A stretch of DNA of 64,000 bases from Phytoseiulus persimilis (taxonomy: Eukaryota > Arthropoda > Arachnida > Mesostigmata > Phytoseiidae). Position 1 is the first letter of the stretch. Every line of letters starts with the position of its first letter. Both the position numbers and the translations under genes were made by a program. Positions 16,695 to 42,559 of this stretch are shown piece by piece. The notes beneath the pieces are model-generated. The model searched no databases and was not told the origin of the DNA. It was given only the letters and a program-made list of their open reading frames with translations. The stretch lies in NCBI GenBank assembly GCA_037576195.1, contig CM075102.1, forward strand, positions 6,758,001 through 6,822,000. The letters run 5' to 3'.

Positions 16695-17613
16695 TCAATG
16701 AAAATGGCATTCCATGTAGAAACAGTCGCAACACAAAATCCTCTGGCAATGCGCGCATCGAATGAATGGTACAATAATGCAGTTCGGCGTTACGCAATCA
16801 CCTTCGAATTCGAAAATAAGCTCGGACATGGGCAAAAATGGCACTGCGGGTACGTCGAAGCTGCCTAACCGCCAAGCACAAAGCCAATGAGGACGGAACA
16901 ACGGACTCTGGAATCGATTGTGTATCAACGAATGCATCCTTAGGACGCCATTCCTTCGGTCCACGCGGGAGTTGTACAAAAAACCATGTTCAGTTAGTCT
17001 CTTGGCGAAACCTTTCCAGAGTCGGGAACAATAAAGATCGAGAGGTTGCACAAAGCTCGATGAACCGGCAGGGAAAACTTTCACTGCGACGACTTTCCCC
17101 GGGATGTTGTAGGATTCTTGGTTGTTGTGTCCTCCCCACGAGTCGACGAACAAGACACATCTGTTGTCATGCAAGCAGTCCACGATGTCCTTGAAGACGG
17201 TCTGACACCACATGCGGACAAGCTCTTCCGTCAACTTTCCCGATTTTGTGCAGGTCACATACAGATTTCGATAATTCGGCATGGAAGCCGCCACGATCGG
17301 ACCGAATTGATTTGAACTTCCAGTTTGGGTTGGCATCAATGCAGTCCAGGATCCGACAGATTTGCCCGAACGTGAACAGTCCTTGCGGTCCTCCCATCTA
17401 CGGGTTTTCGATCAGAGGCTCGTAATCGTCGCCATGGCCGTACGACTCGTACAGTTCCTCGACCTCCTCAACGTCTACGGAATCTTTGTGCGCGAACTTC
17501 TTCATCGTTGACACGATATCAGCCGCTAGTTTCTTCTCGATCTCCCGGGCGTCTTCTCGAGCACTCGGGGCGATATGCAAGGACTCCAGCTGTTGCTGAA
17601 TCAGCGACACCAA
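16695..17613 (-). pseudogene. pogo/Tigger-like DDE transposase, partial
   Basis: The minus strand carries the DDE_1 catalytic region: CVLFVDSWGGHNNQ (near 17160), then FPAGSSSFVQPLDLYCSRLW (near 17065) and FAKRLTEH. This D...QPLD layout is diagnostic for pogo/Tigger transposases. Upstream, 17613-17398 encodes an acidic helical segment (SLIQQQLESLHIAPSARED) ending in a stop, and 17397-17167 a second frame with the N-terminal part of the core. No helix-turn-helix DNA-binding domain and no terminal inverted repeats are visible. Dead copy. Confidence 0.75.
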
Positions 17614-18657: not shown

Positions 18658-21022
18658 ATGTCTCAAAACGCAGGCGCATCGTCAAATCCAACCACGGGAG
18701 TTGCGGCCGACGGCCAAGAGCCAGAGGGTCGGCTAACCGCTTATGGCTACCCGGTGCTTCCACATCCACCTACGACGAGCGATGCGGATCGGCAACTACC
18801 GACCGGCAGTGCTTTCAGCGAGTACAGAGTACAGAATGAACACAGCTCGGACGGTGAGATGGAGTCAGAATTCTATACGCAGATATCTCTGTCAGACACT
18901 TTGGACAACCGGACCGGTGAGCAAGTCGCAAGACGATCCGCGCAGGTTGTAGAAGGTAGGCAGGAGGTTGGTGAAGCCGTGGCAGTTACTCCTCGCGGCA
19001 ACAGCATCACCGCAGAGAGGTCTCGATCTCAGTCGGCCCGAGATCCGGACGATACGTCTTGGGCCAGTCCTCTGATCCACGTACCGTGGAGGTCATCCAC
19101 CAAAAATTGGGAGGGTCTCCGGCCGGAGGTGGTTCTTGGGGCGCCGGCATTAGCTGAGGTCTCGAAAATTTCTCCCAAGAATTCTCTTCAGGAACAAGCT
19201 CCAATTCCGGAAATGGCCCCGCACAGTGTAGCTGGTGTAGGGGATTTGTCAAGTGGCATTCCAAGTATGCAACAGCTCGAACCGAATCGGCACCCGCCTT
19301 TGGCAGCGCCGCGAGCACAATACGTGAACCCACAGGCAACACAAGAAGACCCAGCAAATTATCTTCCTAAGCTGAACAAAAACTTCAAAATGCCGAGGTT
19401 CAACGGCGACGTCAAGGAATTCCGAAAATTCATGAGCACGTTCAACGTCTTCGTTCATGATAGACAAATTCCGGACCTACAAAGAATGCTGCTCCTACAC
19501 GAATCGCTGTCAGGCAAAGCATATCACAGTGTGAAACACCTGGACCTCAGTGCGGAAAACTATATCCCAATGCGACGAATACTGGAGAAGCAGTTCGGAG
19601 ACGAAGGTTTGGCGGAGGACAGCCACCTCCGAGCGTTGGACCAAATCCTGTCATCAGGAGGTGGAATCCGTTACGATAACTTGCCCAATTTTGTTAACTC
19701 AATCTCCCAACATATATTGGCACTCATTTCTCTAGGAGAATCCTATACAACACTTTCACCTTCCTACGCAAACAGGGTCCTAGATAAACTTTCCAGGGAG
19801 ACACAACACAAATTCATGACAGCTTTCAGGGACACACACAAGCAAACACACGCGTGCAAACTCGGAGCGTTAGTGGCTTTTCTAGAGTCGGAGTCCCGAA
19901 TAATCGAAGCTCTCACGTCGAATCGAAGCCTGAATGTTAGACAGCAGCCGTCCAACTTCAACCCAAACAGAAGAGCAGCGACGGACTACAACCAGCGGAG
20001 CCCGCAGCTGACTCGAGGTCATACGAATCAGAGACGGGAATTCAACAATTCCAACGGCAAGCAAAACCCTACGTCTTACAAGAGTGCAACGAACAACTTC
20101 CACGTGGCGTCGCGGTCGGCAGTAGCACCAAGTCGGCAAGTTCCTACACCACCCCGGAGAAAACAGAAAATAAGCTGTATATTCTGCGAAGGCGATCACC
20201 CACCGTACCGGTGTCCGGCAACCCTGTCACACTAAGAACGGGAAGAGAGAGCTGAGGCGGCGAAGGCTTGCCTGAAGTGTCTCAATCTCAACCATGAAGC
20301 GAATAGTTGCAAGGAGGCCTTCAGGAAGGTCTGTCGCTACTGCAAAGGGAAACATTACTCGATCATTTGCAGCAAGGCCCCCGCGGACATACAGGAAAGG
20401 AAGTCGACAGTTTCCAGCGTCAACCTGAAGACGGAGATCCATGACAGACCGGTATATCTATGGACGGCTCACGCTCGGGCAGAAGTCGGCGACAAGCGGG
20501 TGTTATGCAGAATACTCATAGATCCTGGCTCGCAGTCTTCCCACATTACGCACGCCATGGTCGGGAAGCTTCAATCAGTTCCTGAGAGACACATCGACAT
20601 GGCGATGTCTACGGCAGGAGGAAGAGTCACCAACATTCGCAACTGTGGAGTCCACCACATAATCCTGCGGAGCAGGTACGACGAACGAAAATCCCTCTCC
20701 CTGGAGGCGGTGGAACTGAAGTGCCTGTCTAGGGCAAAATTTCCCATCTTGAGGGAAGACTTCGGTCTGAAACGCCTGGCCGACCGCGTCCCAGAGGGCG
20801 AATCAGAATGGATCGACATTTTGCTCGGAACAGAGAAAATGGCACGCATAGGGTTCTCAGACCCGCGTTCGTTCGGAGATATTTTCGCTTTCGACAGCAT
20901 GTTCGGATTCATTCTAGGGGGAACGACAACGGGCTCAGTGCCCGGCGAGAGTGCAATGACTCGATTCTGCGGTGTCGAAATTGTCCAGGAGGCGGAATGC
21001 TCTTCCCCAATATACCAGGCAG
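18658..21022 (+). pseudogene. BEL/Pao Gag-protease part of Pol, interrupted
   Basis: Starts at ATG 18658. The first ~235 residues are low-complexity and polar. A DUF1759-type BEL Gag domain follows (about residues 240-420: NFKMPRFNGDVKEFRKFMST; LSGKAYHSVKHL). Then come cysteine knuckles (CIFCEGDHPPYRC, CLKCLNLNHEANSC, CRYCKGKHYSIIC) and the aspartic protease (ILIDPGSQSSHI, near 20515; later DILLGTEKMARIG). A single TAA at 20233-20235 breaks the frame between the first two knuckles; the copy at 1440-2024 is open at the same point, so the stop is probably a mutation. A Copia element is inserted after codons IYQA, and the same frame resumes at 28951. Confidence 0.9.
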
Positions 21023-21400
21023 TGATGAGCCTTTAGGGGCCTGGCTCTAGCTTCTTTGCGGCTGGATGAGAAGATCGGTGGCGCGTACAAGACTTGCCTA
21101 GAGACGACGGCTACTGAATGAAAACGACAATTCTGGTGGACAGAATGTTTGGCTCCCCCAACACACTGAAGTTTTATTCCGGCTTTTATGGTCACTGACA
21201 GGGGAGAGCTACACGGCGAACACTGACGTTTGAAGTCAGTCTACAGGCGTCCGATCTCTATCTCAGTGATCTACAGTATCGCCTGTGCGCAGATGATCAT
21301 GCTCAAAGTTCACTGACGCTTCGCTTACACGACTTGCGTCTTCCCTGATTACCAAAACTGTGCCGACGACTGCTCTGGGTAAAGCATCAAATACTCAACA
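21023..21400 (-). repeat. 3' LTR of Copia copy A
   Basis: Direct repeat of 28573-28950, 378 bp. On the element strand it begins TGTTGAGTATTTGATGC and ends in CA. About ten substitutions and no length change separate it from the 5' LTR. Confidence 0.95.
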
Positions 21401-21401
21401 G

Positions 21402-21410
21402 CTCCCTCCT
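21402..21410 (-). promoter_or_regulatory. Polypurine tract of Copia copy A
   Basis: On the element strand AGGAGGGAG lies directly before the 3' LTR (AGGAGGGAGC, then TGTTGAG). This is the expected place and composition for the plus-strand primer of an LTR retrotransposon. Confidence 0.75.
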
Positions 21411-21695
21411 ACACAGAACAGTCGCTTGCAGATCATAGCCGGAACCTTCTGATGTGGGGAACATTGCATGTGACATTACTCGGATGCGCGATTCCGCGAT
21501 TACAGATCTCTTCAGCGGAAGCATCTATCGAACATGCAATGTGTAGAGACTTCACTAGATACTTTATCAGTTCAATGGTTCGAATTCTATGGAGAAACTT
21601 CAAGCTGATGTCTGCCTAGACATCTTTGTCGCGAAATTTGCTTTCGATTGAAGTGACATACGACCGTATCTTGAGACAAAATCTCGCCAAAATCG

Positions 21696-21702
21696 TATAA
21701 AA
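21696..21702 (+). promoter_or_regulatory. TATA box for antisense gene 1 (copy A)
   Basis: TATAAAA on the plus strand, antisense to pol, 58 bp upstream of the ATG at 21754. An initiator-like CACTCAATT lies about 23 bp downstream. The promoter sits about 300 bp inside the inner edge of the 3' LTR and drives transcription back into the element. Confidence 0.65.
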
Positions 21703-21753
21703 GGGGTTGCTCTCTAGCACTCAATTACTTAACCTCCCGAACGTCGTTTCGAG

Positions 21754-22280
21754 ATGTCCTCGCCTCAGGAACAGCAGATGGTCCCGACTCCCTCAAACGA
21801 AGATGACATTTTTGTCATTATCCTCCCGAGGAGGATCGTCCAGGCCTTACGAATGCTGCGTAGGCTTAGTGGGGGAAGACCCTGCTTAATGATAGTTGTC
21901 TGTGGCATTTGTGTGCTGCTTTGGATTGTTTTCGGTAAGTAAATTCGTCTGTCACTCTGATTGTTATTTATTTTGCTATTCCTTTTTCTCATTCAATTCC
22001 TTGTTTCACTTATCATTGTGCTCTTCATTCAGACAATCGGGCCCTGCCGAGGCTGGTCCAGCTTGAAGAGGTCCTGCGAGAGAGGATCGACCTGGCCCAG
22101 TTTCTCTGTGAGAGACTTGGGCAGCACTGGGTGTGCTTATCCTCCGCGACCAGACGATGTCTGGTCCTGAGGACAGAAGTGCCTGTGCCCATGGTGGCAG
22201 TCTGCCGGATGCAACGGCAGGCATTGCGAATGTTCGTCAGTGTGTGTCGCGAATTTCAAGTTTATCCATGTTTAGAATAA
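21754..22280 (+). CDS. Antisense gene 1 (copy A): spliced type II membrane protein
   Basis: Two exons. Exon 1 is 21754-21934; intron 21935-22032 (98 bp, TTCG then GTAAGT; TTCATTCAG acceptor after a pyrimidine-rich stretch); exon 2 is 22033-22280. Splicing is phase 1, keeps the frame open and gives 142 codons. The N-terminus is short and charged. One membrane anchor (PCLMIVVCGICVLLWIVF) ends exactly at the intron. Exon 2 encodes a helical, then cysteine-containing ectodomain (RERIDLAQFLCERLGQHWVC; five further Cys). AATAAA (22276-22281) overlaps the TAA. No signal peptide precedes the anchor, so I infer a type II orientation. I do not recognise a family. Copy B has a counterpart with the same architecture at 37542-38601, only weakly alignable (C.R...W.C pattern). 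Confidence 0.65.
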
Positions 22281-22448
22281 AAAAAATTCCTTCCTTTTTT
22301 TTGCACATACTTTCTTGGTGGTTACTCGATGAGTCTTGCTTCCTATGATGATTTCAGCTGGGATTCTCCTCATGACCACGAATCATCTATTCTTCTGAAG
22401 CATGTTTGAAAACATTGGAAAGGGGAGTGGGAGTCTTGACATTACTCG
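22281..22448 (+). other. Spacer between the two antisense genes (copy A)
   Basis: Short AT-rich spacer after the gene 1 polyadenylation signal. Gene 2 may have its own start site here (TTGACATTACTCGATG precedes its ATG), but no TATA box is visible. Confidence 0.4.
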
Positions 22449-23706
22449 ATGAGCGCTGATACATCGAGTGCCACTTCCAACCTTTCTTCCGCCTCTAGAG
22501 CTACTTTCTCTCGATCCGTACTCTCCACGATGGAACTCCAAGGGATCGACCACGAATGTTTCATTTCTCGTCAAAGTAGCGAGATGAATGTTCGATCAAT
22601 TGTTCATTACTTACGCGCGGCCCGTGGTGTGGCGAACTACATGTTGTTTGTGATTGCCGTGTTGTCGGTCGTACTTGGAATTTTGGTCTACTCGGGTATG
22701 TTTCAGACGTCGTGGCATATCTTGAATACGTTTCCGTGAGAGCTGCATTCCAATTTTCCGTTACTCTCCTACAGTTTTCCTCGTAAGCTCCACTTCCACG
22801 AAGAGTGAGCGCATGGTTCGCGAGGCCATGCACCCGCGAAACGCCACGAATCCGCAGTCGGTCGGACTTCTGACAACGGCTGCAACGACAAAACCGACAT
22901 CGACCGTGAGGACCTCAACCATTCCGAAATCTGTGAGATCCACAACGCCGACTCCAACAACACCAACGCATCGTACCTTCACTGAACAAGTGACTCGAGG
23001 GTATTTTCCAACCACGACCGTTCGCGCTGCCGGACATGGGGAACGTCGTCAAACAACCACTCGTCGTTGGGTTCCGAGTTCCACAACTCCAAGGAATACC
23101 CGTCTTTTCGGAACAACGACTCATCACTGGTATGTCGAGCATACGACCGCCGGGCGACGTTCCTATATCAGGCCGACTCAATCCATTTCATCGTCAACTC
23201 CTTCTTCGCGGGTCACATCGTCGTTTCTCACGACGGCATTTCCCACGGTATCAACTACAACCACCACTCGGTCTTCTTTGACCACTGCCGAGGGTGTTGT
23301 TGCCTCGGACCTGCCGCTTACGACAACAGCTCGGACTCTTCCTTCTACTTCCACAACCAGGCGTCTTACTTCTCCAAAGTCAATCACGCATTCAACGACA
23401 ACTGACGCCGCTTCCATATCGACTTTCTTGAGTTCGATTTCGGAAATGAGCACCGATTCGATTTCATCGACTTCGCCACCCAGGCGATTCGAATTGGATA
23501 TCCGTGAATATCATTGTTACCAGTTGTCGTATGTGCGAACCTGCATCTACCGCAGGGATCGACGCTGTGTCGTCATCCCTCTGCACATTCCGACTCCAGA
23601 TCGTTTGTCAGTTCGAAACTATGATCCAAGTAGTTTCGCTGCTTTTGGACAAGATGTATCTGAGATACAAAGGCTCTGTTCCAAATTTTCGATCTTCTCC
23701 GCTTGA
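22449..23706 (+). CDS. Antisense gene 2 (copy A): spliced, Ser/Thr-rich membrane protein
   Basis: Exon 1 is 22449-22695, intron 22696-22774 (79 bp; CTCGG then GTATGT, TCTCCTACAG acceptor), exon 2 is 22775-23706, giving 392 codons. The phase-1 intron falls inside the membrane anchor (MLFVIAVLSVVLGILVYS continues as V-FLVSS after splicing). The cytoplasmic end is Ser-rich. The ectodomain is a roughly 210-residue Thr/Ser/Pro mucin-like stalk, likely O-glycosylated. It ends in a compact C-terminal domain (FELDIREYHCYQLSYVRTC, then DRRCVVIPLHI and IQRLCSKF). That domain aligns with the end of copy B gene 2 (40720-40959), including Y.C...SY.R.C....DR.CV. AATAAA (23713-23718) follows the TGA. Function unknown; a mucin-like attachment or surface protein is inference. 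Confidence 0.7.
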
Positions 23707-23800
23707 TCGACGAATAAAGGTTCAAATCTTCAAATTTGTAAATAGTGAGACGTGCGTTTTATTATTTGGGAAGGCGAGATTCACAAGAAAGAGTTATATC

Positions 23801-24307
23801 TCAAATCTCTTCGGTTGTCGGTCGGTATGGTCCATCCTCCTGTTCAAGAGGCGGATCAGGCAAGTGAGCGTATGACCGCGCTCGAATTCGTCCGATCCAT
23901 CTCGTGAGAACGACCAATCCGGCGAGTACCGAGAGCACGTTTGTGACTACAAAGTATATCGACAGGAATTTGAACCAATATCCAATCGTCCGATCAGGAT
24001 CGGGAACCGGCGGCGATGGCGTCGACGGGTGCGTATGGTTGAAGTATGGAATCCAAACGTCTTCTCCTCCTACGGCAGTCCTATTCTTGATCAGGCATAC
24101 AACTTCTCTTGACGCCAATCTGAGGCAGCTCGCTTCGAGCTCCACGCAGTCGCATGGGAAGTTGTTCACGTTTGTTCGGGAAATCGTGCATGACCAGGTC
24201 ATCTTCTGACAATCAGTGTCGCAGTCGGAGTATGTGAAGTACCCCAACGCGCTACTGGCCATCACGCAAATCATGATGAACGCGATCATCATCTTGACGG
24301 TTTCCAT
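23801..24307 (-). CDS. ORF3 (copy A): small secreted, membrane-anchored Cys-rich protein
   Basis: The ATG at 24307-24305 directly follows CTTGCAG, an ideal splice acceptor, and overlaps the last 56 bp of pol in another frame. The protein has a signal peptide (MIAFIMICVMASSALG, residues ~6-22) and an ectodomain of about 85 residues with eight or so Cys and N-glycosylation sites (NRT, NHT). A Pro-rich linker, one membrane helix (FVVTNVLSVLAGLVVL) and a short basic/acidic tail follow. The ectodomain matches copy B ORF3 (YF.Y..DC, NFP.DC..L, LAS..VVC, GG.D.WI.Y.N.TH). Position after pol, signal peptide and type I anchor are envelope-like. It is much shorter than a fusion envelope and no fusion peptide or furin site is visible. 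It may act with the two antisense proteins. Confidence 0.75.
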   Translation of the reverse strand: METVKMMIAFIMICVMASSALGYFTYSDCDTDCQKMTWSCTISRTNVNNFPCDCVELEASCLRLASREVVCLIKNRTAVGGEDVWIPYFNHTHPSTPSPPVPDPDRTIGYWFKFLSIYFVVTNVLSVLAGLVVLTRWIGRIRARSYAHLPDPPLEQEDGPYRPTTEEI

Positions 24308-26237
24308 CTGCAAGTGATCTAAGTCTTTGGAACGTTTCTCTAGGCAGGCACTTCGTCAGAATATCAGCAACGTTCTGTGCTGTCGGGCAATAGTGGATTG
24401 TGACTTCTCCGCGCTGTAGTTTCTCTCGACAGTAGAAATGTCTCACCTCGATGTGCTTTGAGCGCTTGTGGAAAGAAGGGTTCTCAGCAAGAGCGATCGT
24501 CGACTGGTTGTCAACGAGCAACTTTGGTACGACTGGATGTCCAAGCTCTGCGAGTAAGCGCGCTGTCCAAATCGCGGTCTTGAGTGTCTCAGAGAGGGCC
24601 ACAAGCTCCGCCTCCATTGAAGAGAGCGTCACGGACGCTTGGCGGTTGCTCGCCCAAGAAATGACTCCACCTCCGAACCGAATCAATGATCCGGTGGTGC
24701 TCCGTCTCGTTTGCTCATCGCCAGCGAAATCTGCATCGCTGAAACACTCGAGCAGCTCTGGACCGCTCCCCGTGTACCGGAGACCGAAAGTCTTGGTACC
24801 TTGGAGGTAGCGCAGCACTTTCAATGCGAGATCCCAAAGACGTCTGGTGGGACGATCCAGGAACCTTGACAGGTATCCTACCACGTAACCGAGGTCAAAA
24901 CGCGTCGCAATCGTGAGGTACATCAAACCACCAACGATTGAACGATACGGCAGTTCTGGCTCGACTTCGTCACTGGGATTCGACTTGTAGCTGTTGTCCA
25001 TTGGGACCGCTGTTTCCTTGCATTTTGACATCTGGAATCTGTTTAGCAGTTCTTGGATATACTTTGATTGGTGGACACGAATGACGGAGTTGTCATCTGA
25101 TGATTCGACATGTAGACCGAGAAAGAACTCTAACTTCCTGGGAGTGATTTCGAACTCCTTACCGAGGTTCTCGAGAAACTCCTGCACGACCTTTTGGTCT
25201 GATCCCGCTGTCAATCCATCGTCAACGTACAGGGCAACCAAAATTCGTTTTGGGCCAATTGTGAAGTACACGCAAGGGTCAGCTTGGCTCTGTGTGAGTC
25301 CAAGTCCTGTCAGAACCTGGTCGATCTTCAGGTTCCAAGCCCTTGATGCCTGACGAAGCCCGTAGACCGCCTTCAAGAGTTTGCAGACTCGATTTGTTTC
25401 ATCTTCGAACCCTTTTGGTTGGTTCGTGTAGATTTCTTCCGATAGTTCCGAGTGCAGAAATGCTGTCTTAACGTCGAATTGGTATAGCTTCAATTTCTCC
25501 CGGGCAGCTATTGATAGTATTGTTTTGATGGTATCGAACCTAGCTACAGGCGAGTAGAGCTCTGTGAAATCTATACCTGGACGTTGGCTGAATCCTTGAA
25601 TGACCCATCTTGCACGGAACCTCTCGATGTTACCTAGGGCGTCTTCCTTTGCTTTGAAGATCCATCGATTCCCAACCGTGCGTTTGCCTTTTGGAAGTTC
25701 GGTGAGCTCCCAAACCTTGTGGAAATCGAGCGACGCCATCTCCTCTGCCATTGCACTAAGCCACTGTTGGCTGTAATTGGACTTGTGAACATCTTCTATA
25801 CATGTTGGTTCGTCAACCAAATTATTTACACCGGTGCTTACTGTTTCGCTGACACACATCGCAACGTGTGCGCTGCCGGCCTGGTACCTCTCCGGAGGAC
25901 GCAACTTGGATCGATCTCGTAGCTCGTATCTCCCGCGCCGTTCGTTGCGTTTTTCACTTGGGGCAGCCGCTCCTGCGGCGCCATGTCCTTCATTCGAGGA
26001 TTCTCTTTCCGGCACGGGGCCCGCGGATGCTGCTTCTTCTCTTGCTGATGCGTTCTCTCTGGTATCCGCTGACGGATTGGCTTCTTCGATCTGCTCTTCG
26101 CCGTTGCCTTCAGGCGCTTCTGCTTCGGCGGCATTCTCTGAGGCGACTCCTCCATCCAGTGGACTGGGAGTGCTCACCTTCACGTCTTTCGTCCTGACGA
26201 TCTGTCTGGTCTCGGGATACCACACACGATAGCTGAG
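24252..26237 (-). CDS. Copia copy A reverse transcriptase-RNase H
   Basis: This is the second half of the Copia polyprotein, in frame with the upstream part except for one TGA at 26238-26240. It starts with an acidic spacer, then the Copia RT: WLSAMAEEMASLDFHKVWEL, VGNRWIFKAKEDALGNIERF, FDVKTAFLHSELSEEIYTNQ, LKKAVYGLRQ-type LLKAVYGLRQASRAW, and catalytic YVDD at 25218-25229. RNase H follows: ECFSDADFAGDEQTRRSTTG (near 24735), SSMEAELVALSET, VDNQSTIALAENPSFHKRSK, ending ADILTKCLPRETFQRLRSL. The stop is at 24252. Length and motif order are normal for Copia, so apart from the TGA the enzyme looks intact. Confidence 0.95.
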   Translation of the reverse strand, partial: LSYRVWYPETRQIVRTKDVKVSTPSPLDGGVASENAAEAEAPEGNGEEQIEEANPSADTRENASAREEAASAGPVPERESSNEGHGAAGAAAPSEKRNERRGRYELRDRSKLRPPERYQAGSAHVAMCVSETVSTGVNNLVDEPTCIEDVHKSNYSQQWLSAMAEEMASLDFHKVWELTELPKGKRTVGNRWIFKAKEDALGNIERFRARWVIQGFSQRPGIDFTELYSPVARFDTIKTILSIAAREKLKLYQFDVKTAFLHSELSEEIYTNQPKGFEDETNRVCKLLKAVYGLRQASRAWNLKIDQVLTGLGLTQSQADPCVYFTIGPKRILVALYVDDGLTAGSDQKVVQEFLENLGKEFEITPRKLEFFLGLHVESSDDNSVIRVHQSKYIQELLNRFQMSKCKETAVPMDNSYKSNPSDEVEPELPYRSIVGGLMYLTIATRFDLGYVVGYLSRFLDRPTRRLWDLALKVLRYLQGTKTFGLRYTGSGPELLECFSDADFAGDEQTRRSTTGSLIRFGGGVISWASNRQASVTLSSMEAELVALSETLKTAIWTARLLAELGHPVVPKLLVDNQSTIALAENPSFHKRSKHIEVRHFYCREKLQRGEVTIHYCPTAQNVADILTKCLPRETFQRLRSLADGNRQDDDRVHHDLRDGQ

Positions 26238-28484
26238 TCATTCTTCGTCGATCCCGACAATGTAGCCTGGGAATCCTCTGGTGTCCAACTTGTCCTTCTG
26301 CGGGGTGCGGTTGTAAAACTTGCACTCGGTGCCAAATGCTCTGATGAGACTGATGTATGGTTTTCTCCTCATGACCATCTCGTACGGTGTCTTCCCGGTT
26401 GATTCGACAAACTGTACGCAATTCGTCGTGTGGGCGGAAAAGCTCACGGCTTCCGCCCAAAGGTACTTGGGCAGGCCATTGTCGATGAGCATGGTCCTTG
26501 CCAGGTCAAGCAACGATAGATTTAAACGCTCACTTACACCGTTAAGTTGGGGGGTAAAAGGAGGGGAGTAACTTACATCAGCTCCGATGGCACTCATGAT
26601 CTCCTTCACTCTTTGATTCTTGAACTCAGTCCCTTCATCAGAGTGGAGATGATACACAGTGAAACCGCTTTGATTCTGGAACCATTTGACGAACTCCGCG
26701 ATGTGGTCAGGCACTTGATCCTTTGATTTCAAGAAGTACACTTTTCGAAACCGAGTAATGTCGTCAGTCAGCGTGAGAAACAGATTCGCTCCTCCAAGAG
26801 ATCTCTTACGCATAGCGCAGGTGTCCGCGTGTATGTGCCCTGGTCTTGGAGCTACCACTTTCCCGGGATTCGGCCTGTTGCTCGAACGATGCATCTTGCC
26901 TTGGGTACATACGTCACATTTCACGAAGTCATTGATTATCTCGTATCCTTCGCGGTTCAGCATTTTCCTGAGGGTCTTAACGTTGATGTGAGCGAACATT
27001 TCATGTACCGCTTTCAGACTTACTCTCTTCTTCAGTCCCGCAACGTTTCCCTCCACTGGTTCACTTGCATGGAACACGAACAATCCATTTTGTTGCTCAG
27101 CTCGAATTTCATCGTTGTCTCGGAGTATGGTGATGGCCTCCTCAGTTACCAAAATGCGAAACTTCTCGTTTAGTAGCTTCGAAACTGAGATTAGATTTCT
27201 ACGAAGCCTGGGTACGTACAGAGCGTCCTTCAGACATAGCGTTGCGGTCTTGTTGTCGTTGTTCACTGGCACGATTGCGGTTCCTGACCCCTGTGCACTT
27301 AGGGTGTTGGATCCGCCGAGTGCGACCACTTGGTTGTCTTCGAACGGCTTGTAGTCCGTCATCCATTTCAGGCTGGTTAGCATGTGGTGGGTCGAGCCGC
27401 TATCAACAGCAAATATTTCTTCAGCACTTGCCTGATTGACTTCGGCTTGCTGGCATTCCACGATCAGGGCTCCAGCAATGTTGGCTTGCGGCGGTAGTGT
27501 TCTCGATTGTCCTCTGCCTCTTCCTCTGCCTCGAAATCCGCCTCTGCGTTGATTCCCGCCTTGTCGGGGAAGTCTGCAGGCTGATTGCATGTGTCCTCTC
27601 TGATTGCAGTTGTAACATATCACTTCGGATGACTGCACAGATGTTCTTCGGAAGTTTGATCTTCTGGCGAAGTTTCTTCTCCTGAAGTGTTGATTCCTTG
27701 AGGGCTTGAATCGGGAGAACATCGCTGTGATCTCGTTGACGTCACTTTGGTTCCTTCGAGTGGCTTCTCCTTCGATTAGATCCGTCAGTGTGTCCAGATG
27801 TTTGTCAGAGTCCAGTCGGGTGCTCCATCCCTGTCGGAACGGTTCCCATGAACTTGGAAGCGCCTCTAGAAGTTTGGAGCACTGGACATCGTCTGGTAAG
27901 TTGATTCCAACTGTGTTGAGCTCGAAGATGACTTTCTCGTAAGCGAGGAGGTTATCGCCAACGGATAGTCCTGGCTGGTATTCGAACGTCATGAACTTCG
28001 ACAGTGCCAGGCCCTTCCTTGTGCCTGTTGCGCGCGTGAACTTGTTCTTGATTCGGCGCCATATCTCCTGTGCTGCTATGTTATCTGCGTTGTCGAGGAA
28101 TAATGATGTGGCGAGATTCGGGTGTATCGAGTTGATTAGCACGTACCTCGCAGCTCTGTTTCCGATGGTGTAGTTCTTCATTTGCGTTTTGGTCTCTGGT
28201 GTGTTTGCTTGATCTGGAGCTGGTGGGTTGAGTTTCCCGATGGTTACAGGCCAGGCATACGGTTCTCCATCTAGTACGGATGGCATGACTGTGCGCCATG
28301 GTATGTAGTTCTTGCCGTCTAGTGCTAGGATGATGTTGGTTGCGACTCGTGGTCTTGGTCCACACACGATGGAATCTCCGGATGTGCTGAAGCTGGGTTC
28401 TGGATCAACTTCGAGACCGCCCAGTCCGTAGTGAACGAAGCCGTGGGGGCCTTGGGCATCTCTGGCGGATTGCTGTCTTGACAT
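26238..28484 (-). CDS. Copia copy A Gag-protease-integrase
   Basis: ATG at 28484, 748 codons. Gag occupies residues 1-330, with IPWRTVMPSVL, the UBN2-type Gag core (IWRRIKNKFTRATGTRKGLA; LPSSWEPFRQGWSTRL) and a CCHC knuckle (CYNCNQRGHMQSAC, about residue 290) followed by an RG-rich tail. The protease active site FAVDSGSTHHM is near residue 360. Integrase has its HHCC region (HEMFAHINVKT, CDVCTQGKMH; ~490-535) and the D,D,E core (HADTC ~553, HSDEGTEF ~615, SERLNLSLLDLAR ~652). The frame ends GYIVGIDEE then TGA where copy B reads GIDDGGLSYRV, so TGA probably replaces a Gly codon. A programmed stop is less likely because Copia normally makes one polyprotein. Confidence 0.95.
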   Translation of the reverse strand: MSRQQSARDAQGPHGFVHYGLGGLEVDPEPSFSTSGDSIVCGPRPRVATNIILALDGKNYIPWRTVMPSVLDGEPYAWPVTIGKLNPPAPDQANTPETKTQMKNYTIGNRAARYVLINSIHPNLATSLFLDNADNIAAQEIWRRIKNKFTRATGTRKGLALSKFMTFEYQPGLSVGDNLLAYEKVIFELNTVGINLPDDVQCSKLLEALPSSWEPFRQGWSTRLDSDKHLDTLTDLIEGEATRRNQSDVNEITAMFSRFKPSRNQHFRRRNFARRSNFRRTSVQSSEVICYNCNQRGHMQSACRLPRQGGNQRRGGFRGRGRGRGQSRTLPPQANIAGALIVECQQAEVNQASAEEIFAVDSGSTHHMLTSLKWMTDYKPFEDNQVVALGGSNTLSAQGSGTAIVPVNNDNKTATLCLKDALYVPRLRRNLISVSKLLNEKFRILVTEEAITILRDNDEIRAEQQNGLFVFHASEPVEGNVAGLKKRVSLKAVHEMFAHINVKTLRKMLNREGYEIINDFVKCDVCTQGKMHRSSNRPNPGKVVAPRPGHIHADTCAMRKRSLGGANLFLTLTDDITRFRKVYFLKSKDQVPDHIAEFVKWFQNQSGFTVYHLHSDEGTEFKNQRVKEIMSAIGADVSYSPPFTPQLNGVSERLNLSLLDLARTMLIDNGLPKYLWAEAVSFSAHTTNCVQFVESTGKTPYEMVMRRKPYISLIRAFGTECKFYNRTPQKDKLDTRGFPGYIVGIDEE

Positions 28485-28525
28485 CGTGATGCTGAACTGT
28501 GACTTCCTTGATTCACCGATGTATA

Positions 28526-28530
28526 CTTAC
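28526..28530 (-). promoter_or_regulatory. Candidate leader splice donor of Copia copy A
   Basis: On the element strand the leader between 5' LTR and gag reads GGTGAC then GTAAGTATAC, a near-consensus 5' splice site (exon end at 28531). Joined to the acceptor before ORF3 (AG at 24309-24308) it would make a subgenomic ORF3 mRNA whose first ATG is that of ORF3. Inference from sequence only. Confidence 0.45.
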
Positions 28531-28572
28531 GTCACCGACCCGCTCAACCTGAGTGTGTCGTGCTGATAACGC

Positions 28573-28950
28573 TGATAAGCCTTTTGGGGCCTGGCTCTAG
28601 CTTCTTTGCGGCTGGATGAGAAGATCGGTGGCGCGTACAAGACTTGCCTAGAGACGACGGCTACTGAATGAAAACGACAATTCTGGTGGACAGAATGTTT
28701 GGCTCCCCCAACACACTGAAGTTTTATTCCGGCTTCTATAGTCACTGACAGGGGAGAGTTACACGGCGAACACCGACGTTTGACGTCAGTCTACAGGCGT
28801 CCGATTTCTATCTCAGTGATCTACAGTATCGCCTGTGCGCGGATGATCATGCTCAAAGTTCACTGACGCTTCGCTTACACGACTGGCGTCTTCCCTGATT
28901 ACCAAAACTGTGCCGACGACTGCTCTGGGTAAAGCATCAAATACTCAACA
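28573..28950 (-). repeat. 5' LTR of Copia copy A
   Basis: Direct repeat of 21023-21400. On the element strand it starts at 28950 with TGTTGAG and ends at 28573 in CA. It is followed to the right by GGCAG, the target duplication, and the resumed BEL frame. Confidence 0.95.
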
Positions 28951-30024
28951 GGCAGAATCTATAGGAACAGAGCCACCGGAACAGTCCACGTCGGCCTCTG
29001 ACAGGAAATCACAAACGATGGAAGACATTCGGTTCCGGCGGACTTCGGAGGATGTCGGCTTCGAAAGAGAAGCGAGCGAAGATAAAGATGAGGAGGATGA
29101 GCTGGATGAAGCTCTGATCAAGAACTTCCGCGAGACTACATACCGTGATGAGACGAACCGTTACGTCATTCGGCTTCAGCTGAAGGACAATGTGTTGTCG
29201 CTGGGAGACAATCACATTTTGGCTCTCTCTCGGCTATATTCTCTCTTGAACAAGCTTCCGAAGGACCACATCAAACTCAAAGCTGTAGACCTGGAGATGA
29301 AGAAATACCTGGACGATGGTTTCATCGAAGCGGCACAGCCAAGGAAGGAGAATCAACTAGTTCATTACCTCCCGGTTCAGGCAGTGTTTAAACACTCCCC
29401 GGGCGCCCCGTTTGACCTGAAAACGAAGGTCTTCAAGTATGCATCTTCAAGAAGGTCAAATGAGGCAGGTTTGAATGATGTACTCCATCAGGGGCCGAAC
29501 ATGCTTCCAAACATAATCAAAGTACTCATGAAGTTTAGAGAATACAAATTCATGCTGACAGAAGACATTGAAAAGGCTTTCAACCAGTTCAAAATCGCAG
29601 AAGAAGACCGCACGCTTCTGCATTTCCTATGGCCCATGGGGATTTCCGAAAATGCGGCAGCACAGATTCAGAAGTTCTGGACAACGCGTCTCGACTTTGG
29701 CCTTCTAAGCTCGCCATCCCTACGCTGCCGAGGTATAAAACTGCACCTGGAAAACTCGGAACGTTTGTATCCGGATCAGACAGATTTCATCAGGGAAGTA
29801 TCGCAATCTTTCTACATGGATGATATTTGTTTCGGAGCGGACTCGATGGAAGAGGCAAAAAGAGAATCAAGCTACTTTTCGAAATCTTCGAACATGGCCA
29901 TTTTTCCCTAAAGAAGTGGGCCTCGAACTGCAAACATCTTGGTTCCGTCGTTGCAAAAATTTCACCAGTTCCAGACACTGGTGAAGAATTCAAACTAGAA
30001 CAAGAACGAAAAACCCTTCTCTAA
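28951..30024 (+). pseudogene. BEL/Pao reverse transcriptase part, resumed after Copia
   Basis: The BEL frame continues as GCAGAATCTATAGG, giving AESIGTEPPEQ. A spacer, then RT: RYVIRLQLKDNVLSLGDNHI, HYLPVQAVFKHSPGAPFDLK, FKYASSRRSNEAGLNDVLHQ, EDIEKAFNQFKIAEEDRTLL and catalytic YMDD at 29813-29824 in SQSFYMDDICFG. A frameshift near 29860 moves the next piece (LLFEIFEHGHFSLKKWASNC; HLGSVVAKISPVPDTG) to another frame, which stops at 30024. RNase H, integrase and 3' LTR are missing, replaced by the DDE_Tnp_4 element. Compared with known BEL RTs the copy is recently inactivated. Confidence 0.9.
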
Positions 30025-37541: not shown

Positions 37542-38601
37542 ATGATTGCCAGTGTCCGTACTGACGTTGCCAAGGTTGTAAGTCAAGTTGGAGTTATGTG
37601 CTCCAAAGATCGCTCTCCCGACTCATCCACTACGGGGAATGTCGATTCCCTGGCGCGAAGCATTGCTGAACTGAAGGACAACATCCATCGTCTTGAGAAC
37701 AAGATCATCACGGTTGATAAGTGAGCCAAGAAGCAATCTGAGATTAACTCAAGAAACATCAATGAGGCGCTTGCTAAGATTACACTCACCGAATGCTCAC
37801 TCAAGTCTCATGATGACGCCAGCAAGATGAACTGGGCAGCGAACTCGGGAAATCTCCAAGAAGTTCGCGATCAACTCGCACGTAATAGTGCCGCCGTTGC
37901 CAACATCCTGGTGTCGCTGAACGAGATCTCAGCACATGTGGACCGAGTTTACACGATGTGTAATAACTTACAAACGAACCAGTCATCATTCGAAGAAGAG
38001 CATGAAGATATACCACCACCGCCGCCTGCTCGAAGGAGATTTTTGATTCGTCTATTTCAAGAACTTCTGAACTACGTTCTCACATGCAGAGGATGCTGAA
38101 TTTTTCTCATTCTCCTACTGATTATGGGTATGTATTTCATCATTCTAGAACTATCAGTCATGAATTTCTGATGGGGTCTTATAAATTAAATCCCCTTTTT
38201 TTCTAGTTGGAAGTATTCCCTTCGGCATCTACCGCATTCATCACGCTGGTGGTGTTGTTGTAGCTTCTTCAGTAACACCTGACTTCTCCGATGATGACTC
38301 AATCGTTCCCGCGAGTGATCCACCCTCAGTGATCCAGCAGCGCCCTGTGAACCGCACAGGGCTTACCAAGAAGTCAGATTCGGAAAATGTTGTGCTTCGT
38401 GGCTATGGATGCAAACGTATCCCTCAGGTCTCTGGATGGATATGTATTCATGAGACTAGAGGTCTCTGCATGCTTGAGTGCAAAGCATGCTTGAGTGTTC
38501 CCGGCAATAAGCCAGTTACCCAAACAGTCCTGTGTACTCACACTATTGACAATGGTGTCTGTGGTGCTTGCAAGCCCACCACCGTTTGTAGTCGTGTTTG
38601 A
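37542..38601 (+). pseudogene. Antisense gene 1 (copy B): spliced type II membrane protein, two stops
   Basis: Antisense to copy B pol. Exon 1 is open in one frame from 37542 to 38127 except for TGA at 37722-37724 and 38097-38099. It encodes coiled-coil-like repeats (SLARSIAELKDNIHRLENKI; VRDQLARNSAAVANILVSLN), a Pro run, basic residues and a membrane anchor (IFLILLLIM) at the exon end. Intron 38128-38206 (79 bp, ATGG then GTATGT; TTTTTTCTAG) is phase 1, as in copy A. Exon 2 (38207-38601) encodes a Cys-rich ectodomain with about ten Cys (GYGCKRIPQVSGWICIHETR; CMLECKAC; CGACKPTTVC). Topology and intron position equal copy A gene 1. Sequence similarity is weak. Confidence 0.6.
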
Positions 38602-38649
38602 TTTTACGCCTGTGGTTAGGCGGTTTTTAATTCGAACCCTCAATCACTT

Positions 38650-38874
38650 TCAGACCGTCCCTTGATCTTTTGGAAGTCGACGTCTGTATCTTTTGATGAG
38701 CTTGGTTGCATTGGCAAATGAATAAATCAAAACATTGGCCTTGAGATATGGAATCTTGTATTTCTGTGTTTTCTTAACACACGACGGCTCCTCCCCCTTT
38801 TCTCTGTAGTCGGTAATACTCTGTTTCGTTCTGGCATTTACTGCCATTCATCGGCCTGCCAATCTGTCGTTAAG
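38650..38874. other. Spacer between antisense genes of copy B
   Basis: Intergenic sequence upstream of gene 2 of copy B. No TATA box at the expected distance, and no ORF with support. Confidence 0.35.
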
Positions 38875-40959
38875 ATGCAGGTCCGCGTATCAAACAGTGC
38901 GAGCATTGCTCTTGTATGTTCAGTTTCTATGTGTCTGTTGATCATTTGGACAATCATTCTGCATATTGGGAAACCTGACTCAGTGTCCAAATCAGGAGCG
39001 AGCTTAGTAACCTCCATACTCCCTTCGAATGAGTCTTCTGAACCTGAGCGTGGCTACGTGAGGGTGACCATTGATTCATCATTCCGTTTTTCTTCTCCAA
39101 GTTCCAGTGTATCATTCACGGAACTCAACGCTGGTGCTCAGGTCAGTGTGGGCACGACCAATGCTCCACCACACTCTGAACATCATGTATCTCCTCCTCC
39201 GCTTGCTCCATCTTCAATGGAGCCCTTCTGCACTGCCTCGAATCTGCATCCAACATTCAGAACTGAACTTTCAACAAGTGCACCTATATCTACGACAGAG
39301 ACCTCCGTCTTTCGTCCCTCCACTGCTCAACTTTTGATGGAGTTGAGGGAGCGCCTGTTCATCGAGTCGGGTCAAAAACCCGATCGCATTCCTGATTGGT
39401 ACCACCGATCTCCAATTCGGTCACAACGACCAATAATTATTACTGTGGATTATAATCCACAGTAGTCCCTTTTCTAAGCCCATGAGTGTGAGTGTCACAA
39501 CCCTATCACCCAGGTCTTTTGAGAATGCTGTATCTTCAAATCAACATCTGCCTCCGCGTGGCCTGAAAGGCCAATCTTATGTTCCTTCGATATCTAGAGT
39601 TTCCTCTAATTTTGACCTCCAAGGAAGTGATTCTAACTTATCATCGGTCAGAATGAACCCGCAGACCGTTTCCAATCCTTCAACACCGTCATCGCTTTGC
39701 TCACAACGACCACTTCCTCAACCGCTCGGAAACCAATGATCAAAGTCATGACCTCGACAACTACCTCAACAACAACAACCTCAAAACCAGCCAGCAAGCC
39801 ATCAACATCTACCATGATTCAAGAGTCTTCATCCGAGAGTTCTTCTCTCAGTACCACGGTCTCACCAATTGCTGATGAGAGCCCTGTACAGAAACTGGTA
39901 GCCTCTTCTACTGACAAGGGAGCTATACGAAGTGTAACACCCAGATTTGAATGAGAAGGTGCTCATTTTGTAGTCCATGGTGGGTCATGTTCAGGCCCAC
40001 AGTTGATCGTCTTGAATGGGCCCGTGTTTTGGGCTGACTGATATGGGGAATACGCATTGAGACGGAGTAGGCTATTACGTCTTCCCCCTGGATCGCTTGT
40101 GACCGAGCGGCAGCACGATATGACACCCCCTTGCGGTCATGATCGTGGATTAGCTCCGAAGTCCTGAGGACGACGGAAGCAATTCCTATCATGAGAAACG
40201 ACGCAAAAAAACAATCAATTACAAGCAAACATATTCTGTAGCATTTCTCTCCCAAGTTTTTCTGATAACGCCAAGAAAAACTTTGCATATGTGAGCGGCA
40301 TGGTATGAAATGGGCTAAACACCTGTTGAAGACTATGCCTCATAGGTCACCCAAGATATTGCTTTCCGCTCTGGGTTAGGTGAAACAAGATTCACTCGAT
40401 CTCTCTGTGTGCTACCTAGTCCAGTCACTGATTCAGAGTCGAAAACTCCAGTCACTAACCAGAAATAGGGAAGTCGATCGGCCCTGGAAGGCCGGAAAAC
40501 GTATTTTTCTCCGGATTTCGGGCTCCTTGAGAGAAAAAACCACGGACCCCTTCAAGACGATCAACTGCGGGCCCGAACATGGCCCAGCATGGACTACCGA
40601 ACGGGCACCCTCTCATTCAAATCTGGGTGTTACACTTCGTTTAGTTCCCTCGTGAGACATCATCAGCAGTGGTCTCTTCACAGTACTCAACGCCTCAACT
40701 GACCACTACCAGCGCTCCTCCACCTGAAGTTCTCCCCATGATCTTCCACATACCATCCAATAGGTATCAATGTGAAATCATTTCATACAATCGATTATGC
40801 AGATCCGTTGTAGATCGGACCTGTGTTCTTGTAAAACGAATGACCAGACTTAATCATCATCTATCTGTTCTCCCATACGAGAAAGATGACCATGTTTTGG
40901 ATGAGGAGCATTCAAAGATTCTACAGGTTTGTGATGGTCATCGTAACTTCATTGCGTGA
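38875..40959 (+). pseudogene. Antisense gene 2 (copy B): Ser/Thr-rich membrane protein, interrupted
   Basis: ATG at 38875 (MQVRVSNSAS) leads to a membrane anchor (IALVCSVSMCLLIIWTIIL) and a Ser/Thr/Pro-rich stalk to a TAG at 39463-39465. Similar low-complexity sequence continues in other frames (39482-39739, 39697-39930; TTSTTTTSKPASKPSTSTMI). A DNA element with inverted ends is inserted at about 39931-40647. After it, 40669-40959 holds more stalk and the conserved C-terminal domain (FHIPSNRYQCEIISYNRLC; VDRTCVLVKRM; LQVCDGHRNFIA). This aligns with the end of copy A gene 2, including five Cys. Unlike copy A, no intron is apparent at the anchor. Decayed. Confidence 0.65.
39931..40647. mobile_element. 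Non-autonomous DNA transposon with ~100-bp inverted termini
   Basis: The ends CGAAGTGTAACACCCAGATT (left) and its complement AATCTGGGTGTTACACTTCG (right) begin inverted repeats of about 100 bp that also share CAGTTGATCGTCTTGAA further in. Length is about 717 bp with no transposase. It interrupts copy B antisense gene 2. A target duplication is not clear (TAT/TTA-type flanks), so the superfamily is open. Confidence 0.7.
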
Positions 40960-41011
40960 AAAGTGAATCTTTCAATTTGAACAACGAGAGAGTTATTTAT
41001 TTTACTATGGG

Positions 41012-41560
41012 TCAAATATTCATAACAGTTGTACTGTAAGGGGATCCAGGGCTTGGTTCTTCTCTGGAATCTGGCGGCTGTTCTGTTTCAAGCTGCTGAT
41101 ACGCACGTCGGCGTAAAGCCTGAATTGTGCAGGCGAACAAGCTGTACATCACATAGAATAGTACAAGTACAGTCAACATGCCTGCATATAGCTGAATGAA
41201 ATCCAGTCCATTCGTTGGAGTCGGGACTGGTTGCGGCGGTTCGTTGTGGGTTAAGTTGTAATAGTCTATCCAGATGTCTGATCCACCCTGAACACTTCCG
41301 TCTGGATGCACACACACAACCTTAGGTGATGCCAGTTCTTTATATGCATCGTTCAAGTCAATGCAATCTACCGGGAAATTTTCTGTATCGCGCTCGTATA
41401 GTTTGCATGGTTGTTTTAGTCGGATGCAGATGGGCGTGCAATCTTTAGTGTATTCGAAGTACGCGGCGACCTTGGTCGCCATCATGATTGTGACCATGAA
41501 TATCTTCTGTTGCATCTTTTCTGTAACCGGCAAGATTTCGTGAGCGGACGAATTGAGTTT
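41012..41560 (-). CDS. ORF3 (copy B): Cys-rich membrane-anchored protein
   Basis: On the pol strand, continuous with the RNase H frame; the likely ATG (near 41512) again follows an AG (GTTACAGAAAAG then ATG). A hydrophobic N-terminus (IFMVTIMMATKVAA) acts as a signal. The ectodomain (YFEYTKDCTPICIRL; NFPVDCIDLN; LASPKVVCVHPDGSV; GGSDIWIDYYNLTHNE) aligns with copy A ORF3 across its length. A Pro-rich linker, membrane helix (IQLYAGMLTVLVLFYVMYSL) and a polar tail ending at 41012 follow. ORF3 is the only cassette gene of copy B without internal stops, although pol around it is wrecked. It converges on antisense gene 2, 53 bp away. Confidence 0.75.
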   Translation of the reverse strand, partial: KLNSSAHEILPVTEKMQQKIFMVTIMMATKVAAYFEYTKDCTPICIRLKQPCKLYERDTENFPVDCIDLNDAYKELASPKVVCVHPDGSVQGGSDIWIDYYNLTHNEPPQPVPTPTNGLDFIQLYAGMLTVLVLFYVMYSLFACTIQALRRRAYQQLETEQPPDSREEPSPGSPYSTTVMNI

Positions 41561-41795
41561 CCGGTAAGGCTTTCGTTCCAAATCAGAGATATTCAACTCT
41601 GAAGGGCAATGGATTATCTTGAAATCTCCATTTTCAATCTTTTCTCTCAGCCAGAACTCACGAGTCTCAATGTGCTTGGAACGCCGTGTTACCTGGTTCT
41701 CGGTGAGAAGCTGGATACAGGCGGTGTTGTCCACTCGTAGTATCGGTGTGATTGGATACCCAATCTCTTGGAGCAGCCTAGCTAGCAGAGATGGG
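41561..41795 (-). pseudogene. Copia copy B: RNase H fragment
   Basis: LLARLLQEIGYPITPILRVD, DNTACIQLLTENQVTRRSKH and IHCPSELNISD match the last third of Copia RNase H. It joins ORF3 in one frame. The part of Pol between LLGLRII (48110) and this point, about 250 codons, is missing; the repeat/hAT composite lies in its place. Confidence 0.8.
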
Positions 41796-41960
41796 CGTAA
41801 TCATAATCATGATTATTAATCACATCTTGATTATGATTATGATTAAAAGTCGTAGTCAAAGTATGATTATGAATATTATCATGATTTTGATGACTATATC
41901 CATGTATATGATGACTATTATTCATATTAAGGTGATTATTATTGCTTCTGGTATACTCAA
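41796..41960. repeat. AT-rich ATGATTA-type arm, left
   Basis: ATAATCATGATTATTAATCA-type simple repeat. Related AT-rich sequence lies in inverted orientation at 48030-48110, so the two form outer arms of the composite inserted in Copia copy B. Confidence 0.6.
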
Positions 41961-42320
41961 GCACCCGGTGGAAGGATGACACGCACACGAGGTCTGTGCG
42001 GGACCGGGGTCCATGGACGAGATTCCGGGATCGATCTTGACCGTACTTTTTGGAGTCTAGGGAAGTGATTCCGAGATCGATCTGGCCATACTTTTCTGAG
42101 TATCGAGGAGTGATTTCGGGATCGATCTGACAATACTTTTCTGAGTATGGAGGAGTGATTCCGAGATCGATCTGACCATACTTTTCTGAGTATGGAGGAG
42201 TGATTTCGGGATCGATCTGACCATACTGTTCTGAGTATGGAGGAGTGATTCCGAGATCGATCTGACCATACTTTTCTGAGCATGGAGGAGTGATTCCGGG
42301 ACCCATCTGACCATGCAAGA
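41961..42320 (-). repeat. Tandem array of ~47-bp units, left arm
   Basis: About six units (GATCGATCTGACCATACTTT, TCTGAGTATGGAGGAGTGAT) related to the arrays at 10900-11243 and 32200-32690. The outer unit and its flank (CTCAAGCACCCGGT... to ...GGGAAGTG) recur inverted at 47905-48025. Confidence 0.85.
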
Positions 42321-42559
42321 GCCATCAGCGGGAGAACGTCGATTGGAAGAAGCGAGCTGCTCGTTGGAGAGCGAAAAGTCGACCATCTGTAAAGTCAACT
42401 ATACTCGAAAAAGCAGACCAATAATCTGCTTGAGGAAACGACCAAATCAACCAGCTCGAAGACCCGAGTAAGAAGCATGTGCCTGATCAAGAAAGATCCA
42501 TCGGCAACTTGAAATGAATACGGGAACGAATGAACACTGGATATAGAGTTTAATTCAAT

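What the first reader, a model, noticed from the sequence alone, without database searches (positions are those of the whole stretch)
21401..24313. Copia element with a three-gene 3' surface-protein cassette, two genes antisense
Seen: between RNase H and the 3' LTR of a bounded Copia element (LTRs, target duplication and polypurine tract all present) lie ORF3 on the pol strand and two genes on the opposite strand, all predicted to be membrane-anchored. The antisense genes have consistent short introns, open spliced frames and polyadenylation signals at their stops. Known: envelope-like ORFs after pol occur in some LTR elements, and antisense spliced genes from the 3' side occur in some retroviruses. 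Inference: this is a convergent, mixed-strand envelope-like module that I do not recognise from any described Copia lineage.
Basis: partly seen in the sequence, partly recalled or inferred. Interest (0 to 1): 0.92.

Follow-up and report, generated by a model that had tools for sequence, protein, structure and literature searches.

The report
Copia retrotransposons with swappable antisense surface genes
A group of jumping genes in this animal genome carries three predicted cell-surface protein genes, two of them written backwards and split by introns, and one of those exists in many very different versions swapped between nearly identical copies, as a virus might vary its coat.

Summary
Observation confirmed. 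A Copia element (LTRs 21023-21400 and 28573-28950, TSD GGCAG, pol on the minus strand) lies inside a BEL/Pao gene. Between pol and the 3' LTR it has ORF3 (sense; signal-like start, Cys-rich ectodomain, one TM) and two antisense spliced type II membrane genes, A and B, each with a phase-1 intron after the TM; B has a Ser/Thr-rich stalk.
It is not a one-off. 35 of 40 related loci fetched keep gene B sequence, 33 with ORF3 beside it. ORF3 homologues follow 86 of 150 scored Copia RTs on the same strand, none on the opposite strand. A and B are paralogues; ORF3 shows no relation to them.
Main new result: the gene A slot is hypervariable on a near-identical backbone. 30 slots form 19 nucleotide clusters; A exon-2 dS is saturated in 170 of 210 pairs, against median pol dS 0.07. 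Blocks and sub-blocks of A-B-ORF3 are shared between different backbones. A second Copia family shows the same pattern. Median dN/dS is below 0.5 for all genes.
Best reading: an envelope-like surface module with a swappable specificity gene. Function is inferred; no transcript, protein or second-species locus was examined.

The parts
21023..21400 (-). 3' LTR of the Copia element (378 nt)
   Evidence: 368/378 identical to the 5' LTR
28573..28950 (-). 5' LTR
21018..21022 (.). target site duplication GGCAG (second copy 28951-28955)
   Evidence: flank join leaves an open BEL/Pao frame
26238..28526 (-). gag and integrase part of gag-pol (Retrotran_gag_2, zf-CCHC, rve), up to an in-frame TGA at 26238-26240
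   Evidence: several other copies have longer frames
24252..26237 (-). RT/RNase H part of pol (RVT_2)
23801..24307 (-). ORF3: 168 aa; hydrophobic N-terminus, ectodomain with 7 Cys, TM about residues 117-135, basic YxxPhi motif, PYxxT tail; minus-strand AATAAA at 23763
   Evidence: median dN/dS 0.24
21401..21725 (+). conserved region between 3' LTR and gene A, with TATAAAAGGGG at 21696 and an Inr-like site about 21726: putative antisense promoter
   Evidence: detected in 28 of 40 loci, 80-98% identical, 26 of the 28 at 88% or more
21754..21934 (+). gene A exon 1: short cytoplasmic part and TM
22033..22280 (+). gene A exon 2: 6-Cys ectodomain; stop overlaps AATAAA
21726..22390 (+). hypervariable gene A slot, about the whole transcription unit; its right end differs between copies
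22449..22695 (+). gene B exon 1: cytoplasmic part and TM
22775..23706 (+). gene B exon 2: Ser/Thr-rich stalk (42% S+T) and C-terminal 4-Cys domain; AATAAA at 23713
41015..41557 (-). second, more distant ORF3 homologue in the window, with a gene B-like domain at 40705-40956 (+); fragmented element

Best explanation
This is a Copia (Pseudoviridae) clade carrying a conserved surface-protein module. ORF3, on the pol strand, is a small type I-like membrane protein. A and B, on the other strand, are paralogous type II membrane proteins with Cys-rich heads, made from promoters of their own with introns. Because A and B are antisense to the genomic RNA, their introns are not spliced out of it and survive reverse transcription. 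I propose that ORF3 works with A and B at the cell or particle surface to pass element particles between cells (for example soma to germline), and that A carries the changeable specificity. Different A types, or whole A-B-ORF3 blocks, move between backbones by template switching and are kept diverse because rare types do better (as in receptor interference or exclusion). Shown: anatomy, conservation, purifying selection, block sharing between backbones, hypervariability. Inferred: expression, surface location, transmission role, template switching, the form of selection.
For: Gene B sequence in 35 of 40 loci, with ORF3 beside it in 33. ORF3 homologue within 2.5 kb downstream on the same strand for 86 of 150 scored RVT_2 loci (this family included), opposite strand for 0. 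Convergent ORF3 within 6.5 kb for 38 of 48 A hits and 46 of 55 B hits. In ORF3 five Cys are invariant and a sixth nearly so, with the YxxPhi and PYxxT tail, in 10 sequences at 25-34% identity to the window's; six Cys invariant in A (11 sequences) and four in B (6 sequences). A and B homologous: hhalign probability 93.7; family-only score 28.4 against a maximum of 19.8 in 200 column shuffles. Median pol dS 0.068; A exon-2 dS saturated in 170 of 210 pairs. A distance unrelated to pol distance, r 0.05, P 0.22, n 12. L025 and L035 share A-B-ORF3 at 97-100% on backbones 92-96% alike in pol. Same pattern in a second family.
Against: No Env, attachment or fusion homologue by sequence or fold. ORF3 is small, with no recognised fusion peptide (by eye). 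The minus-strand AATAAA at 23763 would cut genomic RNA short if used. No splice acceptor for an ORF3 message was found by a simple pattern. No transcript data. Many copies have broken A, B or ORF3. A distances do correlate weakly with B and ORF3 distances (r 0.26-0.29, P 0.0006-0.03), so A is not wholly free of its neighbours. 3 of 55 B hits have a same-strand ORF3 within 6.5 kb.
Confidence: 0.55

Rival explanations
1. A and B are exclusion proteins: integrated copies express them to keep related elements out, and only ORF3 (or none) serves transmission. Different A types are exclusion groups.
For: A (and by position B) appear to have promoters of their own apart from the LTR; discrete A types on one backbone resemble phage immunity groups (comparison from general knowledge); the cytoplasmic exon is at least as variable as the ectodomain exon (median nucleotide identity 0.54 against 0.61).
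Against: Ser/Thr-rich stalk and conserved Cys heads point outward; block sharing also takes ORF3 along.
Confidence: 0.25
2. The antisense transcripts act as RNA (dsRNA or silencing control) and the reading frames are incidental.
For: Antisense transcripts with such a possible role are reviewed for plant and Drosophila elements (PMC7264820, passages).
Against: Frames, splice sites and Cys patterns are kept where nucleotides no longer align; median dN/dS below 0.5.
Confidence: 0.05
3. Apparent hypervariability of A is ordinary age: the copies with different A types belong to different old families.
For: Some loci (L040, L044) do have older backbones.
Against: The window copy and L009 are 97-100% alike in pol bins and 95-98% in LTR and leader, but 45-57% in A. 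L018 has identical LTRs, L041 one mismatch in 381.
Confidence: 0.05
4. A and B are host genes carried along by chance capture.
For: Introns and own promoters are host-like features; 10 of 48 A hits and 9 of 55 B hits had no convergent ORF3 nearby and were not examined.
Against: Conserved orientation next to ORF3 in many families.
Confidence: 0.05

Closest known systems
Plant Retand/Tat Gypsy elements with antisense ORFs between pol and 3' LTR (PMC11963269 abstract and passages; PMC7264820 passages)
   Same: [quoted passage not shown] in Grande an own promoter; lineage-wide.
   Different: Gypsy, plants; antisense proteins are mostly TRP28 or other DNA-related domains, some nuclear; the Retand paper reports no putative transmembrane regions in the sense ORFs of this region. 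No hypervariable slot in the passages seen.
MDG1-group sORF2 / FAST-like proteins (PMC11952523, passages)
   Same: Small single-TM protein of an LTR element that moves particles between cells without a classical Env; polybasic patch after the TM.
   Different: Gypsy-type elements; ectodomain about 30 residues, four of six MDG1 proteins with a myristoylation motif. ORF3 has a hydrophobic N-terminus, a Cys-rich ectodomain of about 80 aa, and two antisense partners.
Envelope-carrying elements: errantiviruses, Anakin (named in PMC12440569 passages), TelKA of bdelloid rotifers (PMC5408684 passages)
   Same: Membrane-protein gene carried by an LTR element.
   Different: Env of traceable viral origin; no such origin found here.
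Retroviral antisense genes (HTLV HBZ, HIV ASP; recalled, and search listings)
   Same: Antisense transcript from the 3' side, spliced and polyadenylated in HTLV.
   Different: Recalled products are not of this type; the putative promoter here lies between LTR and gene.
RSV G and paramyxovirus attachment proteins (recalled)
   Same: Type II, mucin-like stalk, Cys module: same plan as B.
   Different: No Pfam match of B to any family; negative-strand RNA viruses.

Membership tests
Copia / Pseudoviridae LTR retrotransposon | gag - integrase - RVT_2 RT order with copia-type gag | tested here: met
   Retrotran_gag_2, rve, then RVT_2
Copia / Pseudoviridae LTR retrotransposon | LTRs with TG..CA ends and short TSD | tested here: met
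   5-nt TSD
Known envelope-carrying retroelement | sequence homology to a described Env or fusion family | tested here: not met
   Pfam: nothing at E 0.01 for the window's ORF3, A exon-2 and B frames; best weak hits 0.038 (Glycophorin_A, 1 of 10 ORF3 members) and 0.008 (Ig-CFAP74_3rd, 1 of 11 A members); no PDB sequence match at E 1 for ORF3 or A profiles; B was not searched against PDB
Known envelope-carrying retroelement | Env fold | tested here: inconclusive
   [not shown]
sORF2/FAST-like transmission protein | single TM, polybasic patch after TM | tested here: met
sORF2/FAST-like transmission protein | N-terminal MGxxxS/T and short ectodomain of about 30 aa | tested here: not met
   ORF3 starts METVK and has a long Cys-rich ectodomain
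Retand-type antisense ORF element | TRP28 (PF04195) antisense protein | tested here: not met
   no such Pfam match for the window's A exon-2 and B frames or A profile members
Env-like transmission module (as function) | surface exposure and effect on transfer between cells | not testable with these tools
   needs experiment

The most novel reading that the evidence does not exclude
A retrotransposon 'serotype locus': a Copia clade in which an antisense, intron-bearing surface gene is kept as many discrete, ancient types that are exchanged as cassettes between near-identical elements, under frequency-dependent selection for cell entry or exclusion.
Probability: 0.5. Interest if true: 0.93.

Novelty: new variant of a known kind. 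Interest (0 to 1): 0.82.

Why it matters
Animal Copia elements are usually treated as confined to the cell. A widespread surface-protein module, with one gene that behaves like a variable coat or immunity type, suggests that these elements compete and spread between cells. Antisense placement also shows how an RNA-copied element can keep introns. In this genome it could be tested with stranded RNA and antibodies.

Full report
What is there. The window holds a Copia element on the minus strand, with 378-nt LTRs at 21023-21400 and 28573-28950 (368/378 identical) and the target duplication GGCAG. It sits inside a BEL/Pao gene whose frame is continuous across the empty site. Pfam finds Retrotran_gag_2, zf-CCHC, rve and RVT_2 in Copia order. 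An in-frame TGA at 26238-26240 splits gag-pol in this copy; several other copies have gag-pol frames of over 1400 aa.

The 3' module. ORF3 (24307-23801, minus) starts inside the 3' end of pol in another frame. It has a hydrophobic N-terminus, an ectodomain with 7 Cys, one TM and a tail. Gene A (21754-22280, plus) and gene B (22449-23706, plus) each have one intron (98 and 79 nt), phase 1, directly after a TM near the N-terminus, so both read as type II proteins. B's exon 2 is 42% Ser+Thr over residues 15-225 before a C-terminal Cys domain. Of 32 copies with the gene B-ORF3 gap aligned, 28 have a poly(A) hexamer on the plus strand, 30 on the minus strand and 26 on both (no chance control). TATAAAAGGGG is exact in 17 of the 21 rows shown upstream of gene A (22 asked).

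It is a family trait. Searches of the same genome gave 39 ORF3 DNA matches, 47 for gene B, and 152 ORF3 protein matches (150 of 218 candidates scored, so a lower bound). I fetched 40 loci: 35 keep gene B sequence and 33 have both gene B and ORF3, many of them decayed. Without gene B are L029, L024 (the other half of L023's element), L042, L046 and L048. L029 keeps gene A exon 1, the donor and intron sequence, so it is an internal deletion. L042 and L048 were fetched for RT pieces that stop inside pol. Of 150 scored RVT_2 places (443 candidates; this family included), 86 have an ORF3 homologue within 2.5 kb downstream on the same strand and none has one on the opposite strand. Of the A and B protein hits, 38 of 48 and 46 of 55 have a convergent ORF3 within 6.5 kb; a same-strand ORF3 is near 0 and 3 of them. 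Eight distant loci were read: L050, L051, L053 and L054 have pol, ORF3 and both antisense Cys-domain genes; there, frames upstream of the antisense genes include a long stretch that looks coiled-coil by eye. L052 has one such antisense gene plus an extra sense ORF that looks coiled-coil.

Relations among the three proteins. In ORF3, five Cys, a Trp and the PY of the tail are invariant and a sixth Cys and the following Thr nearly so, over 10 sequences at 25-34% identity to the window's. A keeps six Cys (11 sequences) and B four (6 sequences) across families. A and B are homologous: probability 93.7, and score 28.4 against at most 19.8 in 200 column shuffles when only this family's positional alignments are used (probability there 58.6). 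The higher value used sequences picked by a Cys pattern and is partly circular. ORF3 is not detectably related to either.

Hypervariable slot. A search with gene A DNA found only two other close copies (93-94%), whereas gene B and ORF3 DNA found dozens. The 30 extracted A slots form 19 nucleotide clusters, a few of them decayed members of others; 153 of 416 between-cluster pairs have no alignment at E 1e-3. The variable stretch begins at the predicted transcription start. Its right end differs: in some copies it reaches to about 60 nt before the gene B start codon, in others similarity resumes just after gene A's poly(A) signal. Nei-Gojobori estimates on unbroken copies: pol n 18, median dS 0.068, dN/dS 0.21; ORF3 n 16, dS 0.108, dN/dS 0.24; B exon 1 n 20, dN/dS 0.45; B exon 2 n 18, dS 0.103, dN/dS 0.44; A exon 1 n 10, dN/dS 0.23 from 26 of 45 pairs; A exon 2 n 21, dS saturated in 170 of 210 pairs, dN 0.31, dN/dS 0.17 from 35 pairs. 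Pairs are not independent, and choosing unbroken copies favours low ratios. So gene A types look far older than the backbone that carries them, yet are under purifying selection. A distance does not track pol distance (Mantel r 0.05, P 0.22, n 12); it correlates weakly with B and ORF3 (r 0.26-0.29); ORF3 tracks pol (r 0.95, n 8).

Exchange. In 150-nt bins, L025 and the window copy agree at 95-99% in pol, 44-63% in gene A, 65-89% in gene B and 81-91% in ORF3, with a sharp change at the pol end. L025 and L035 agree at 97-100% through A, B and ORF3 but 92-96% in pol and 87-94% in LTR and leader. Within the module, L028 matches L025 at 98-100% only over about 23423-23873 and is otherwise nearer the window copy outside gene A. 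This is what template switching between co-packaged RNAs would give (inference). Of five dated copies, LTR identity runs from 97.4% to 100%, so the family has moved recently.

Replication in a second family. I took 29 of the 43 matches, with ORF3/RNase H at 94-100% nucleotide identity to L052's. An antisense protein hit lies within 9 kb on the opposite strand in 21 of 29: 4 at 97-100%, 2 at 78-81%, 15 at 39-45% with no nucleotide match; 8 have none. The 9-kb limit may include a neighbour's gene in a few cases (one hit is 7 kb away).

Mechanism. A and B are antisense to the genomic RNA, so their introns are not removed from it and return in each new copy (established logic of intron-marked elements, recalled). 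Promoters of their own could express them when the LTR is silent (inference). I think ORF3 with A and B forms a surface set for transfer between cells, with A as the changing specificity part. The chief rival is exclusion of related elements. Both predict many types at once. Neither expression nor location was tested.

What is known. [quoted passage not shown] PMC11963269 abstract and passages), small TM transmission proteins for Drosophila Gypsy-type elements (PMC11952523; passages incl. abstract), and diverse ORF3s in rotifers (PMC5408684; passages). PMC12440569 (abstract, passages) and PMC8220671 (passages) described nothing like it in what I saw. In eight full-text searches no listed title or abstract start described a Copia element with such a module; I opened six of the papers, in part, and the library lacks most subscription papers, so this is not proof of novelty.

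Limits. One genome only. Structure of ORF3 rests on four sequences (mean pLDDT 72.6) and no fold match was found. A and B were not modelled.

Noticed in passing
window 37725-42400: A second, fragmented Copia 3' module: ORF3-like 41015-41557 (-), in one frame with a bit of RNase H, gene B-like domain 40705-40956 (+), coiled-coil-like and TM-like pieces at 37725-39465 (+).
   Followed up: partly
window 42021-42314 and L019:1-1260: Tandem arrays with a 45-nt period beside module copies (6.5 and 28 units); in L019 the array stands where the promoter side of gene A would be. A similar repeat is seen in the translation of L055.
   Followed up: partly
window 26238-26240: In-frame TGA splitting gag-pol of this copy; longer frames exist elsewhere.
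   Followed up: partly
window 28486-28572: GACGTAAGTATAC between the 5' LTR and gag on the pol strand looks like a splice donor that could serve an ORF3 message; no acceptor was found by a simple pattern.
   Followed up: partly
L052:2017-3003 (-): Extra sense-strand ORF (328 aa, coiled-coil-like by eye) between ORF3 and the antisense gene in a second Copia family.
   Followed up: no
L056: Another Copia lineage with two or three antisense frames, two with Cys-rich C-termini by eye; its ORF3 is nearly identical to database protein P0003.
   Followed up: no
window 16695-17411 (-): Frame that looks like a decayed DDE transposase (by eye, untested).
   Followed up: no
C1:54608415, C2:13130663, C2:12858097, C1:42835242, C1:15058663, C1:8598148, C3:12906320: Copia RTs with no detected ORF3 but an antisense-domain hit about 1.35 kb downstream.
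   Followed up: no
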